A stretch of 64,000 bases of DNA from a virus (IMGVR_UViG_3300005527_000050:26274-90273), one strand, 5' to 3'; numbered from the stretch's first letter, positions 43,425 through 47,796 are shown. The notes: generated by a model from the sequence alone, not told the origin. Made by a program: numbers and translations.

Positions 43425-44045
43425 ATGTTCATCAAAAATAATAAACCAGTTAAAATAATTGGATTTCCCGAATCTTCAATCACTCAACAATACTTTGAAG
43501 TTTTCAATAAGGAAGGATTGAAAGATATTTCTATAATCACTCCCAAAGACTTCAAAGCTTTAATTTCAAAAGATAACTATCAATACATTATTGCTTTCTA
43601 TCTTGACATGGATCTTAGAAAAGAGGTCTGTGATTTATTAGATAATCTTAATCTAGATTGTTTAACATACATAGATGATTCGGTTTACATGTTCTCCTCT
43701 TCCAAAATTGGAAGGGGATCTTTTATTGGTCATTTGTGTGAGATTTGTTGGAATGCTTCAGTAGGCGATCATTGTTATTTTGATAACCAATCTGGTATTG
43801 GTCATGATGTTATCCTAGGTAGAAATAGTATCATTAGTTCAAGAGTTTATGTTGGTGGGAGAACAAAAATAGGAGAAAACTGTAAGTTCTTTTTGAATGG
43901 AACAGTTATGAATAACTTAAACATTTGTGATAATGTAATTTTATGCACACACAGTAACATAACAAAAGACATCACAATTCCTGGGAAGTATGTTGGTAGA
44001 AATGCAAGACTTATGAAATCTGAAGAGTCCGATAAGGATCTCTGA
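43425..44045 (+). CDS. Hexapeptide-repeat acetyltransferase, NeuD/PglD-like
   Basis: 206 aa. N-terminal Rossmann-like half (PVKIIGFPESSITQQYFEV), then a left-handed beta-helix of hexapeptide repeats (IGRGSFIG, ASVGDHCYFD, IGHDVILG, TKIGENCKFF, DNVILC) with the candidate catalytic His in SGIGHDV. Layout of sugar O-/N-acetyltransferases of the NeuD/PglD group acting on UDP- or CMP-linked sugars. Fits with the glycosyltransferases at the window start as sugar-modifying genes. AT-rich, with its own late promoter inside an otherwise early region. Confidence 0.7.
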   Translation: MFIKNNKPVKIIGFPESSITQQYFEVFNKEGLKDISIITPKDFKALISKDNYQYIIAFYLDMDLRKEVCDLLDNLNLDCLTYIDDSVYMFSSSKIGRGSFIGHLCEICWNASVGDHCYFDNQSGIGHDVILGRNSIISSRVYVGGRTKIGENCKFFLNGTVMNNLNICDNVILCTHSNITKDITIPGKYVGRNARLMKSEESDKDL

Positions 44046-44058
44046 TCGGTCAGCCCCT

Positions 44059-44087
44059 TGACTCTCCCCCGAATCCACAGTATTTTG
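44059..44087 (+). promoter_or_regulatory. sigma70-type promoter
   Basis: TTGACT (44059-44064), 17 bases, TATTTT (44082-44087) followed by GGCC. Serves the 48-aa gene and the Cys-His-Asp protein. Confidence 0.75.
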
Positions 44088-44109: not shown

Positions 44110-44256
44110 ATGAACGACGATTTCAACTACGATTCCTTTGATGAGAACGATCTTTATCAATCCATGATGGAAACTGGTCCTGAAGATTGGCTTCCTGATT
44201 CTGGTATTCGAGAGGAGTTTGATCGTGAAACTCTTGCACTTCTAAAGAACTTCTGA
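44110..44256 (+). CDS. Hypothetical acidic protein, 48 aa
   Basis: Very acidic N-terminus (NDDFNYDSFDENDLY). TGATGA junction with the next gene. Not recognised. Confidence 0.5.
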   Translation: MNDDFNYDSFDENDLYQSMMETGPEDWLPDSGIREEFDRETLALLKNF

Positions 44257-44762
44257 TGAAAGAAGTTGTAAGACATTCTTACAAAGATGGAGAAATCTCT
44301 GAGACTCGTACTCTGAGGTTTCTCCCGTTTTATTATAACCAAGAGATTGCGGAGTCAATGATGATGATTATTCGCAATCATCTGACTCCAGATCTTCTCA
44401 CTAAAAAATATCGGGAAGAAAATGTAAAGAACCCGATGTATGGTCATTGTTACCATTCAACTCAGGCCCTATTCTATCTCTTGGATCCTCATGATTTGAT
44501 TCCAATGAGCGGGATAGATTACAGAGGTGATACACATTGGTGGTTGTATGATGACCGAGGAGTTACCTACGACACCACAGCTGATCAGTATTACTCTGTG
44601 GGTCAAGTTCCGCCCTACGATGTAGGTAAGAGAACACAATGGTATGGTTGGAAACAACGACCACACCAAAGATCACTGGACTTAATTATGCGAGTCCTTT
44701 ATGCTTGTAACATTGAGTATTGTTACGAAACCCTCAAACCTCAGACAGGGCCCTTGACATAG
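44256..44762 (+). CDS. Putative Cys-His-Asp hydrolase/transglutaminase-like phage protein
   Basis: 168 aa. NPMYGHCYHSTQAL (C65), GDTHWWLYDD (H94) and VTYDTTADQY (D106) follow the Cys-His-Asp order of papain-like and transglutaminase-like folds and match a phage family with NP..GHCY..S.AL, THWW and D.TA.Q signatures. Catalysis is inferred only. The 3' end overlaps the -35 box of the next promoter. Confidence 0.55.
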   Translation: MKEVVRHSYKDGEISETRTLRFLPFYYNQEIAESMMMIIRNHLTPDLLTKKYREENVKNPMYGHCYHSTQALFYLLDPHDLIPMSGIDYRGDTHWWLYDDRGVTYDTTADQYYSVGQVPPYDVGKRTQWYGWKQRPHQRSLDLIMRVLYACNIEYCYETLKPQTGPLT

Positions 44763-44782
44763 TTCTTTGTCTGATGTATTCT
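44754..44782 (+). promoter_or_regulatory. sigma70-type promoter of the ParB-like gene
   Basis: TTGACA (44754-44759) inside the end of the upstream gene, 17 bases, TATTCT (44777-44782), then GGCCTCATGAG resembling the cassette start region. Confidence 0.8.
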
Positions 44783-44852
44783 GGCCTCATGAGATAAATG
44801 CCTCTGGCAAACAAAATCTCATCACCAACTGCTCTTAGCAAAAACAAACACT

Positions 44853-45941
44853 ATGAAAAAACGCATTATTTTTGGCAAGGAAATTGACCTTGCTGAGTAC
44901 GAAAAGAATTGGTCTAAAGAAGAGATTGAATCCAAGTTTAATGGAGAGTTTGTAGACTTCAGCTTCATTAACTTGGCTAAGAAAAACCCAGATGATCCTG
45001 AGTTTGCCAATGCTGGTGTTAGGTGTGAACAGAACTCTAACAATAGTGTTCTTGACATGCAAGTTTCATACCAACTCCGAGGTTGGGACACTAAGGATCT
45101 CCCCCCAGTTGTCCGAGTTACTGACAACGAGTTTGAGGATGGCCGTACTCGGGCTCTTGCAGCTATGGCTGAGAACGAACCTTTCCTTCCTGTTGTTCGT
45201 ATCCGACCAAAAGAGAACACCAAAGCTTGCTCTTTTGCTAACGGACTTCTGCTGAACAACTTTCCTCCCCGTCGCAAAGTAGTCCAAGAAGACTTCATTG
45301 TTGCTGGTGCTGAATTGGTTCGGATTGGTGAACTTCAACGAGACATCACTGCGATTGAAGACTGGCTCATCAAGATGTGCAAAATTGATGAGGTTTATCC
45401 TAACAATGCTGGTGGTGCATTTACGAAGATTGTCAACGCAATCTATAACCGCACCGAGAATGGTGGTGATCCTATTGTTCGCAAGATGGATCGTGAAGAA
45501 TGGTTGAAGTGGTTGTCTACTTCTCCCGACATGAAAGATGAGTCGGGCAATCGTATTGATCCCTTTGTGCAACTGGATCATGACCCAGATTTTGTTCTCT
45601 ATGATGCTCCGAGTTCCACCAACGAAGCACGACTTCTGAGGAAACTTCTTGAGAATGGTTCTAAGGGTCGTCACACTTACATTGTGTTGTATTCTGCAAA
45701 AGAAAACACTCATGAGGTTCTGAAACTGGGCTTTAAGTCTTTTGTTACCACTACCGAAACCCAACATTCTTCTATCATTCGGTATTCTCAGGCATCCATT
45801 GGTCTTGATGGTATTGATCTGACTAAGATGCCTAATGAAAAGATGTTCACTTTCTTGGGTGTTGTTCCTATCCTGTTTGATGGGAATGGTCACGAAGCTG
45901 CTTTTAAAGCTCATCGTATCCTTCCTATTGATAAGTTCTGA
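44853..45941 (+). CDS. ParB-like domain protein
   Basis: 362 aa. Residues 70-120 (YQLRGWDTKDLPPVVRV, EFEDGRTRALAAMAENE) resemble the ParB/Srx fold with its DGRxRxxAA loop. The remainder contains AGGAFTKIVNAIYN and a C-terminal domain ending FLGVVPILFDG and AFKAHRILPIDKF that I cannot place. ParB-fold proteins bind DNA, hydrolyse CTP or act as nucleases. Followed by an SF2 helicase with its own promoter and a third unknown gene, forming a possible functional unit. Confidence 0.5.
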   Translation: MKKRIIFGKEIDLAEYEKNWSKEEIESKFNGEFVDFSFINLAKKNPDDPEFANAGVRCEQNSNNSVLDMQVSYQLRGWDTKDLPPVVRVTDNEFEDGRTRALAAMAENEPFLPVVRIRPKENTKACSFANGLLLNNFPPRRKVVQEDFIVAGAELVRIGELQRDITAIEDWLIKMCKIDEVYPNNAGGAFTKIVNAIYNRTENGGDPIVRKMDREEWLKWLSTSPDMKDESGNRIDPFVQLDHDPDFVLYDAPSSTNEARLLRKLLENGSKGRHTYIVLYSAKENTHEVLKLGFKSFVTTTETQHSSIIRYSQASIGLDGIDLTKMPNEKMFTFLGVVPILFDGNGHEAAFKAHRILPIDKF

Positions 45942-45965
45942 CCCATAAGGATCTCTGATCAATGG

Positions 45966-45999
45966 CCCCATTGCCCTGCGCCGGGTGATGGGGTATTCT
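45966..45999 (+). promoter_or_regulatory. Stem-loop promoter of the helicase gene
   Basis: CCCCATTGCCC (45966-45976), a 6-base loop and GGGTGATGGGG (45983-45993) form an 11-bp stem with two G-T pairs ending exactly at TATTCT (45994-45999). TTGCCC in the left arm is the -35, 17 bases away. Best example of promoter and stem-loop merged. Confidence 0.8.
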
Positions 46000-46021
46000 A
46001 GCTGTATTGAAACGCAATTTG

Positions 46022-47245
46022 ATGATTCTTCGTCCCCACCAACAACGCGCAGTTGAGTTAATGCAACTGCATAAACTTGGTCAAATGGTGATGCCTACTG
46101 GTGCCGGTAAAACACCTACAATGAGTTTTGATTGTATGCGTCAGTTTGAGTCTGAAACTCCTCAAACGATTGTTATTGTTGCACCTCGCATTTTGCTTGC
46201 AGAACAACTCTGTTCCGAGTTTCTGGAGTTTATCACCAATGCAAGTGTGATGCACGTTCACAGTGGTGAAACTCATCACTTTTCGACTACCAAACCTCAA
46301 GAGATTGTTGACTGGTGGGTGAACACTCGTGGCCATAAACTGATCTTCACGACCTACAATTCTCTGGAGCGACTACAACAATCTCGCATCAAGGTTGATA
46401 CCATTTATTTTGACGAAGCTCACAACTCCGTCAAACGTAACTTCTTCCCTGCAACTGAATACTTCAGTCAAGAAGCCGACCGTTGTTACTTCTTCACTGC
46501 GACTCCCAAACATTCTCTCGCAGTCGGTAAGCCTGGGATGAATGATGTAGATGTTTATGGTCAGGTCATTTGTAATGTTCCTGCACCTGAACTTGTGCAA
46601 GGTGGTTACATTCTCCCTCCGAAAGTGATTGCAAAACAACTTCCAATGGTGAAGTCTGGTAAGATTCCTGCGGATCGTGATTGTGAGAATCTGATTGAGA
46701 CTCTGGATGAATGTGGTAAGGGCAAAGTGTTGATCTGTGCGAAAGCTACTAAACAGATCTCTGCACTGATGTCTGAGACTGATTTCATCCAACAGTTGCA
46801 AGATCGTGGATTCTCTTACCTCTACATCACCGCAAAGACTGGTGCAATTATTGATGGTAAGAAGGTGAATCGTGAGGTGTTCTTTGAGACCCTAAGTGCA
46901 TGGGGTAAGGATGACTCTAAGAAGTTCGTTGTGTTGCATCACTCCATCCTCTCTGAGGGTATCAACGTCTCTGGACTTGAGGGTGTCATCTTTATGCGTT
47001 CGATGGACTACATTGGTATCTCCCAAACCATCGGCCGTGTGATTCGGATGCACCACAATGATGCAGCTCGCATCCGTAGTGGTGAACTGGTTCCTGGTGA
47101 TGTCAACAACTACACCAAATCTTTCGGTCTAGTTGTTGTTCCCGTCTTCAACAAAGTTGGGATCTCTACTCACCAGAAGATCCAAGCTGTGGTCGATACT
47201 ATCTTCCAACAAGGTCAACCTGCAATCTCGGTGGTACGCAAGTGA
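46022..47245 (+). CDS. SF2 DEAH-box helicase
   Basis: 407 aa from ATG 46022 (an in-frame TTG at 46007 lies at the transcription start). Q-like LRPHQQRAV, Walker A PTGAGKT (25-31), motif Ia VIVAPRILLAEQL, DEAH (131-134), motif III FTATP (158-162), a Cys-lined VLICAKATKQIS strand opening RecA2 and motif VI QTIGRVIRMH. Same general type as T4 UvsW and restriction-enzyme helicases. It lacks obvious extra domains. TGATG coupled to the next gene. Confidence 0.85.
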   Translation: MILRPHQQRAVELMQLHKLGQMVMPTGAGKTPTMSFDCMRQFESETPQTIVIVAPRILLAEQLCSEFLEFITNASVMHVHSGETHHFSTTKPQEIVDWWVNTRGHKLIFTTYNSLERLQQSRIKVDTIYFDEAHNSVKRNFFPATEYFSQEADRCYFFTATPKHSLAVGKPGMNDVDVYGQVICNVPAPELVQGGYILPPKVIAKQLPMVKSGKIPADRDCENLIETLDECGKGKVLICAKATKQISALMSETDFIQQLQDRGFSYLYITAKTGAIIDGKKVNREVFFETLSAWGKDDSKKFVVLHHSILSEGINVSGLEGVIFMRSMDYIGISQTIGRVIRMHHNDAARIRSGELVPGDVNNYTKSFGLVVVPVFNKVGISTHQKIQAVVDTIFQQGQPAISVVRK

Positions 47246-47796
47246 TGGAAAAGTGGGAAGTCTACGCTGAAGGCACCTTCAACAACATGAGGGCCAATGC
47301 ACACAACTGGGCCCGATCTTTTGATGACAAACGAAAGATCTCCCGTGATTTTTACTACGGGGTTTTTGATGCAGGTAATCCAAATCCTACGAACCTGATT
47401 AGTGAGAAAGCTCTGGAGAATCAACTCTCCAAACAGTACAGGCTAAATACTCTGGATCACTACCATTCCCCGCAATTTGTGGGTCGGATGATTATGTCGA
47501 ACCAGGAAAAGTATCTAGGGGATTACGAGGAGTTCAAGAAGATCTTTTTGGTCTGCACACAACAAATTGTTGTGACCAAGAAAGAGAATGAATCTCTGTC
47601 ATTCTTGACTGCACCTGATAAGGAAGATTACAAGGTTCTTGTACCTACCAACCTCAAGTACAACCATCTTGGTATCAATTTGTATCAGAGGCAAGAGGGT
47701 AAAGTTAGGTGGAAAAACTCTGATCCGATTGACTCTAACATCTTGGAAGTTCCTGAAGATCTGTTAGAATACGAGAAAAGATATTTGATCGGCTAA
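47245..47796 (+). CDS. Unknown protein coupled to the helicase, 183 aa
   Basis: ATG 47245 (GTG 47242 alternative) overlaps the helicase stop. Segments NAHNWARSFDDKRKISRDFYYG and LDHYHSPQFVGRMIMSN are distinctive but not recognised; charged throughout, no membrane segment. Translational coupling suggests it acts with the helicase. Confidence 0.55.
   Translation: MEKWEVYAEGTFNNMRANAHNWARSFDDKRKISRDFYYGVFDAGNPNPTNLISEKALENQLSKQYRLNTLDHYHSPQFVGRMIMSNQEKYLGDYEEFKKIFLVCTQQIVVTKKENESLSFLTAPDKEDYKVLVPTNLKYNHLGINLYQRQEGKVRWKNSDPIDSNILEVPEDLLEYEKRYLIG

What the first reader, a model, noticed from the sequence alone, without database searches (positions are those of the whole stretch)
44853..47796. ParB-like / SF2 helicase / unknown three-gene unit
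A ParB-fold protein, a DEAH helicase and a translationally coupled 183-aa unknown stand together with separate promoters in an area of otherwise tiny genes. Similar ParB-nuclease plus helicase pairs occur in DNA-processing and defence-like loci. It could act in host-genome breakdown, recombination-dependent replication (UvsW-like) or exclusion of other phages.
Basis: inference. Interest (0 to 1): 0.6.

Follow-up and report, generated by a model that had tools for sequence, protein, structure and literature searches.

The report
Swappable ParB-like gene before phage helicase
In a T4-like virus of cyanobacteria, a gene for a ParB-type DNA-binding protein sits in a fixed slot in front of a conserved DNA motor gene, and in close relatives the same slot holds one of about ten very different proteins, most of them apparently of the same general fold, which looks like rapid part-swapping in conflicts over DNA but has not been tested in the laboratory.

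Summary
The three genes are real and at the stated coordinates. The 362-aa protein has a predicted ParB/sulfiredoxin-fold N-domain (all 21 best structural rows). The helicase is not UvsW: it is a separate ~400-aa cyanophage helicase. The 184-aa protein has no recognisable fold match. The trio is not conserved as a unit. What is conserved is the position. In 28 non-identical relatives, exactly one gene of ~300-470 aa lies just upstream of the helicase, in one of two sub-slots around a 168-aa gene, and it belongs to ten types. Most types share no usable sequence similarity. Six (A, B, E, H, I, K) have fold or profile support for ParB relationship, three only a G-x-x-R motif, one none. Swaps occur cleanly between a conserved early-type promoter and a conserved stem-loop/promoter module resembling the PeSL shuffling cassettes of T4-type phages. 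Types reassort freely with two helicase forms, one of them a split gene. Type A also occurs at two other genome positions. I infer an early conflict gene, acting by NTP-dependent DNA binding or cleavage against host or competing phage DNA, in the manner of GmrS. That function is inference. New variant of a known kind.

The parts
44032..44086 (+). first copy of the repeated regulatory module (ATAAGGATCTCTGATC, then CCCTTGACT...TATTTT early-type promoter) in front of the conserved 48-aa gene; left border of the exchange region
   Evidence: exact 16-mer occurs twice in the window, here and at 45945; promoter pattern 1 mismatch; same module before the 48-aa gene in relatives; no long stem-loop in this copy
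44110..44256 (+). conserved 48-aa gene (o48), flank of sub-slot 1b (types H, I, K, L lie between it and o168 in relatives)
44256..44762 (+). conserved 168-aa gene (o168, phrog_12251), separates sub-slots 1b and 1a
44751..44782 (+). early-type promoter CCCTTGACA-N17-TATTCT of the ParB-like gene; the same sequence precedes types A, B, D and J
44789..44822 (+). leader inverted repeat ATGAGAT...TGCC-TCT-GGCA...ATCTCAT; a different-lettered version with the same pairing precedes the type A gene of L127
   Evidence: two sequences only; a lead
44853..45941 (+). type A ParB-like protein, 362 aa: ParB/Srx-fold N-domain (about residues 22-141, motif G97-R-T-R100), ParB-like helical part (141-204), C-terminal alpha/beta part of unknown role
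45943..46005 (+). second copy of the module: post-stop element CATAAGGATCTCTGATC, stem-loop CCCCATTGCCC/GGGTGATGGGG and TTGCCC-N17-TATTCT promoter of the helicase; right border of the exchange region
46022..47245 (+). SF2 (ResIII/DEAD) helicase of the cyanophage ~400-aa family (T4-GC 36), 407 aa from ATG 46022 (or 412 aa from TTG 46007); not UvsW
47242..47796 (+). 183/184-aa protein (U184), translationally coupled to the helicase; well-folded model, no known fold match; invariant D71-H72 and E114-N115

Best explanation
The locus is an exchange slot for one early gene. A conserved SF2 helicase gene is preceded by one ParB-like gene per phage, drawn from about ten types that are swapped as whole open reading frames between a conserved promoter on the left and a conserved stem-loop/promoter module on the right, probably by recombination in these short shared regulatory sequences as described for PeSL cassettes of T4-type phages. 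The window carries type A. The protein is expected to bind DNA through its ParB-type N-domain and helical part, probably in an NTP-dependent way. Its job is most likely in conflict: recognising or cutting foreign DNA (host or co-infecting phage), as the ParB/Srx-fold GmrS proteins do, with the helicase and the 184-aa protein as loosely associated partners. Shown: the anatomy, the fold prediction, the swapping, the reassortment. Inferred: the exchange mechanism, NTP use, the conflict role, any partnership.
For: Fold: ranks 1-21 of the structural comparison are ParB, Noc, KorB, PadC, pNOB8 ParB-N and sulfiredoxin (Z 5.8-7.7; one helical row intrudes at rank 22), and SerK/SbnI follow. Swapping: 28/28 non-identical haplotypes hold exactly one slot gene of ten types (A1 B4 C5 D5 E2 H3 I5 J1 K1 L1) while flanking genes stay alignable, mostly 70-100%. 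Profile links: A-H E 1e-7, A-K 2e-7, I-K 1e-28, A-B 2e-5; H and E hit ParB profiles (3e-6 and 0.003). G-x-x-R is invariant across A, B, H, I, K and present in C, D, L. Clean borders: same promoter before A, B, D, J and same post-stop module after the types of sub-slot 1a; module stem kept in 22/22 with compensated changes; extra cargo genes bring their own module copy (L024, L026). Mobility: type A at three genome positions, once inverted; type D at regA/hsp20 in Syn1. Conflict-type cargo in the same slot: ParB-motif+HNH (type C), EndoVII-like HNH + DNA methylase. Literature precedent: GmrS is ParB/Srx fold, and GmrSD proteins share almost only a DGQQR motif (PMC4619093, PMC12373910).
Against: No experiment. 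No nuclease motif is recognised in type A, and no Pfam, NCBIfam or PADLOC profile hits it. The type A model is only moderately confident (pLDDT 72.8, pTM 0.53). Types C, D and L rest on a short motif, J has no support. The types were named from what fills the slot, so 'exactly one' is solid for one gene, less so for one ParB-fold gene. Many marine cyanophages have the helicase with no ParB-like gene near it, so the helicase does not need it. Helicase forms (intact or split) do not follow ParB type, which speaks against a tight contact at the helicase N-terminus.
Confidence: 0.45

Rival explanations
1. Selfish site-specific mobile genes: the slot proteins are free-standing homing-type endonucleases (or ride with one, such as the 184-aa protein), and the helicase 5' end is the target; the split helicase is a scar of such events.
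For: One family at three positions and once inverted; positions at regA/gp43 and after gp23 recall T4 homing endonuclease sites (own knowledge); type C and neighbour F1 carry HNH domains; the helicase is split at about codon 50 next to the slot in many relatives; free-standing homing endonucleases exist in cyanophages (PMC3037559).
Against: 28/28 occupied, none empty, in the close clade, unusual for selfish genes; no nuclease motif in types A, B, D, H, I, K; no ParB-fold homing endonuclease found in the literature searched.
Confidence: 0.2
2. Early regulator or replication initiator: the ParB-like protein binds a cognate site in the phage's own genome to control early transcription or start replication, and variants define incompatibility-like groups.
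For: ParB, KorB and Noc are site-specific binders (established knowledge); a second position lies beside the replication genes regA, gp43, gp62; structured leader before type A genes.
Against: The conserved module stem is the same for all ParB types, so it cannot be a type-specific site; the leader core TGCCTYTGGCAA occurs only once in the window, so no repeated type-specific site was found.
Confidence: 0.2
3. Ordinary cargo turnover: a recombination-prone early region in which accessory genes come and go, with no functional link to the helicase or the 184-aa protein.
For: TauD, 2OG oxygenase, G, HNH and methylase genes also come and go nearby; PeSL-type shuffling is a known general process (cited in PMC4503421).
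Against: Slot content is not random: always one gene of ~300-470 aa, six of ten types supported as ParB-related, and the same pairing (I-helicase in S-T4, B-helicase in Sf-CH5/CH8) in distant marine phages.
Confidence: 0.15

Closest known systems
PeSL (promoter early stem-loop) shuffling cassettes of T4-type phages
   Same: stem-loop plus early-type promoter between genes, repeated at several gene borders, with unrelated genes swapped between copies
   Different: here the cargo at one border is drawn almost always from ParB-like proteins and is always present; the original PeSL papers are not in the held library and were only seen as cited in PMC4503421
GmrSD / DUF262 type IV restriction proteins (ParB/Srx NTPase plus HNH)
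   Same: ParB/Srx-type N-domain, sequences so divergent that little beyond a G-x-x-R type motif is shared; type C adds an HNH domain
   Different: window type A has no HNH domain and no DUF262 profile hit; carried by lytic phages, not in a defence island
ParB / KorB / Noc partition and repressor proteins
   Same: predicted N-domain and adjacent helical part align with KorB (residues 35-204, Z 7.7) and pNOB8 ParB-N (26-284, Z 6.9)
   Different: below all ParB profile cut-offs; unrelated C-terminal part; no evidence of ParA or parS
T4 UvsW helicase
   Same: SF2 helicase core of a T4-like phage
   Different: separate gene; lacks the ~100-aa N-terminal part of UvsW; only 22-33% partial identity
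DdrB-like ParB domains of phage polyvalent proteins (PMC5512222)
   Same: ParB/Srx domain used by phages early in infection
   Different: those are large multidomain, often virion-delivered proteins near late genes; these are stand-alone genes with early-type promoters

Membership tests
ParB/Srx superfamily | ParB/Srx N-domain fold | tested here: met
   ranks 1-21 of the VIA comparison are ParB/Srx-fold proteins, Z 5.8-7.7; model only moderately confident
ParB/Srx superfamily | G-x-x-R type motif in the nucleotide pocket | tested here: met
   G97 and R100 invariant across types A, B, H, I, K
ParB_N (PF02195) as curated | score above Pfam gathering cut-off | tested here: not met
   no hit for the window protein; 17 cyanophage records searched with PF02195, none above cut-off; best relative, type H, 15.7 bits against 26.3
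ParB CTPase partition protein | CTP binding and hydrolysis, parS site, ParA partner | not tested
   needs biochemistry; ParA was not searched for
GmrSD type IV restriction | DUF262 N-domain plus HNH/DUF1524 nuclease domain | tested here: not met
   window protein has neither profile; type C of relatives has HNH and a G-N-N-R motif
UvsW | orthology to the T4-core UvsW gene, including its N-terminal domain | tested here: not met
   distinct UvsW orthologue in 12 of 15 records; window helicase starts at its first helicase motif
PeSL cassette | stem-loop together with early promoter in an intergenic position, repeated in the genome | tested here: met
   right-hand module has both, stem kept in 22/22; left copy has the promoter but only a weak stem
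PeSL cassette | promoter active early in infection | not testable with these tools
   needs transcript data
HNH (beta-beta-alpha-metal) nuclease, for the 184-aa protein | DH and N metal site in a beta-beta-alpha fold | tested here: inconclusive
   invariant D71-H72 at a strand end and E114-N115 in a helix; only a Z 3.3 row to T5 SciA endonuclease
free-standing homing endonuclease | site-specific cleavage and biased inheritance | not testable with these tools
   no recognised nuclease domain in type A

The most novel reading that the evidence does not exclude
A polymorphic exclusion locus of lytic phages: each phage carries exactly one of many ParB-fold specificity proteins in a dedicated early slot beside a shared helicase and a new nuclease (the 184-aa protein), and mixed infections are decided by which alleles meet.
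Probability: 0.2. Interest if true: 0.85.

Novelty: new variant of a known kind. Interest (0 to 1): 0.55.

Why it matters
Gene shuffling through small regulatory cassettes is known in T4-type phages, and ParB-fold proteins are known weapons in restriction and plasmid conflict. A slot that is always filled, by one gene of mostly ParB-related type, in close relatives points to a selected function and to strong pressure for diversity. If the conflict reading is right, cyanophages carry an exclusion or counter-defence gene that can be tested allele by allele, with natural swaps as controls.

Tried and rejected
UvsW orthology of the helicase: rejected. Direct profile identification of the window ParB-like protein in Pfam, PHROGs, NCBIfam, PADLOC and by PDB sequence search: nothing usable; the weak TPR hits are taken as chance. 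Relatives in bacterial and archaeal genomes: none found with the type A alignment (a pattern-based scan that can miss distant ones). Link between ParB type and helicase form: rejected; types B, C, D, H, I and K each occur with both the intact and the split helicase; type E was left out because L020 carries extra frameshifts. Programmed frameshifting in the split helicase: rejected, the frame relation is -1 in L006/L008 and +1 in the others, with overlapping stop/start. Strict mutual exclusion of types across 24 genomes: no two of families A-group, D and C co-occurred at strong E-values, but the numbers are too small to mean anything, and L144 seems to hold two. A repeated type A binding site in the window: none found. 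Fold of the 184-aa protein: no PDB match above Z 3.3; phage-only relatives in BFVD.

Full report
The window is part of a 90,273-base IMG/VR virus record (positions 26274-90273) of a T4-like cyanophage relative. All three genes of the finding are present at the stated coordinates. The helicase start is better placed at ATG 46022, since in L015 and L070 the stretch upstream of that ATG is out of frame.

The 362-aa protein. Sequence profiles do not recognise it. An AlphaFold model built from 13 natural sequences (mean pLDDT 72.8) was compared with the PDB: ranks 1-21 are ParB, Noc, KorB, PadC, pNOB8 ParB-N domain and sulfiredoxin, and SerK and SbnI of the same superfamily follow (Z 7.7 for 6sdk_A over residues 22-141, Z 7.7 for KorB 8qa9_B over 35-204). 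Z under 8 can be common for unrelated folds, but here one superfamily fills the top of the list. The motif G97-x-x-R100 is invariant in the family. So the ParB-fold reading is right.

The helicase. It is a ResIII/DEAD SF2 helicase found in 430 phage records, nearly all cyanophages; S-SM2 labels it T4-GC 36. It is not UvsW: a query with P-SSM3 UvsW finds a separate orthologue (55-64%, split in one record) in 11 other records and itself in P-SSM3, and only partial matches of 22-33% to this helicase. The helicase occurs with or without a ParB-like neighbour.

The 184-aa protein. Its model is confident (pLDDT 93) but has no solved-structure match above Z 3.3. Invariant D71-H72 and E114-N115 sit where an HNH-type metal site could be; this is a lead, not a result. 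It is coupled to the helicase in the window and many relatives, and to the type H ParB-like gene in L036, L042 and L065 (overlapping stop and start), where the copy behind the helicase is missing. In the freshwater isolate S-SRM01 and in S-B68 it adjoins a DruA/DUF4338-like protein.

The slot. Relatives found through the 184-aa protein and the helicase share the flanking genes but not the ParB-like gene. Counting non-identical haplotypes that show the whole stretch from the 48-aa gene to the helicase gives 28, each with exactly one slot gene of ten types: A1, B4, C5, D5, E2, H3, I5, J1, K1, L1. The 28 are not all independent, some being near-identical. Types A, B, C, D, E and J lie between the 168-aa gene and the helicase; H, I, K and L lie between the 48-aa and 168-aa genes, and then the first position is free of a ParB-like gene. 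Profile comparison ties A, B, H, I and K into one deeply diverged family (A-H 1e-7, A-K 2e-7, A-B 2e-5, I-K 1e-28). Type H hits ParB profiles on its own (3e-6), type E weakly (0.003). D and L are related to each other and, like C, show G-x-x-R but no profile link to ParB. J shows neither. Sixteen of 28 haplotypes therefore carry a type with fold or profile support, eleven a motif-only type, one an unsupported type. Because I named the types from what fills the slot, 'one gene' is firmer than 'one ParB-fold gene'.

The borders. Types A, B, D and J are preceded by the same CCTTGACA-N17/18-TATTCT promoter, and slot genes of sub-slot 1a are followed, directly after the stop codon, by CATAAGGATCTCTGATC, a stem-loop and a TTGCC-N-TATTCT promoter. 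The stem is kept in 22 of 22 sequences, with compensated changes such as CCCCAT/ATGGGG in the window and CCCTCTT/AAGAGGG in L005. The first 16 bases of the module occur exactly twice in the window, in front of the 48-aa gene and of the helicase. Where relatives have extra genes (G in L024, HNH plus methylase in L026), a further module copy stands before them. This resembles the PeSL elements reported to mediate gene shuffling in T4-type phages, which I could only read as cited in PMC4503421.

Reassortment and mobility. In about half of the relatives the helicase is split into a ~57-aa piece with the Walker A motif and a ~370-aa remainder, with overlapping reading frames. Types B, C, D, H, I and K occur with both forms, so ParB type and helicase form recombine freely. 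Type A also lies at regA/hsp20/gp43 (RN05-S, L128, L129, L134, L138, L144) and between gp23 and gp3 (P-SSM3, L130-L133, L136, L137, L139-L143; inverted in L142). Type D lies at regA/hsp20 in Syn1. The pairing of slot gene and helicase is nevertheless old: type I precedes the helicase in S-T4 and type B in Sf-CH5 and Sf-CH8, at 44-46% identity.

Function. No direct evidence exists. ParB/Srx domains of GmrS type are NTPases and parts of restriction enzymes, and GmrSD proteins are reported to share almost only a DGQQR motif across types (PMC12373910, PMC4619093); ParB-type DNases are also used by phages early in infection (PMC5512222). A slot that is always filled, early, diverse and freely swapped fits a gene in conflict with hosts or rival phages better than a housekeeping role. 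I put the anatomy and swapping at about 0.85 and the conflict role at about 0.45. Rivals are selfish homing-type genes, an early regulator or replication initiator, and ordinary cargo turnover.

Noticed in passing
L005, L006, L008-L016, L060-L067, L070 (helicase 5' end, e.g. L008:3743-5001): The helicase gene is split into a ~57-aa Walker A piece and a ~370-aa remainder with overlapping ORFs; both pieces look maintained in many contigs, a natural gene in pieces.
   Followed up: partly
window 47242-47796; alignment A6: The 184-aa protein has invariant D71-H72 and E114-N115 laid out like an HNH-type metal site, with a weak structural row to T5 SciA endonuclease.
   Followed up: partly
L146:3881-5528 (S-SRM01), L147:2710-4459 (S-B68): Homologues of the 184-aa protein adjoin a DruA/DUF4338-like protein annotated 'putative cytoplasmic protein'.
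   Followed up: partly
L144:3567-4550: A 327-aa protein (phrog_2615) with a G-N-T-R motif directly follows the type A gene; possibly two ParB-like genes in tandem.
   Followed up: no
L023, L024, L048: TauD-like dioxygenase genes come and go on either side of the 184-aa gene; two copies flank it in L024.
   Followed up: no
L026:818-2172, L149:772-1752 (P-SSM3): DNA methylase genes also occur directly upstream of the helicase (with an EndoVII-like HNH gene in L026).
   Followed up: no
window 44789-44822; L127 upstream of 2962: Leader inverted repeat of the type A gene keeps its pairing with different letters in L127.
   Followed up: partly
L117:5022-6419 (Bellamy): Second, diverged copy of the helicase (about 33% identical) lies directly downstream of the first, followed by a methylase-like protein.
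   Followed up: no
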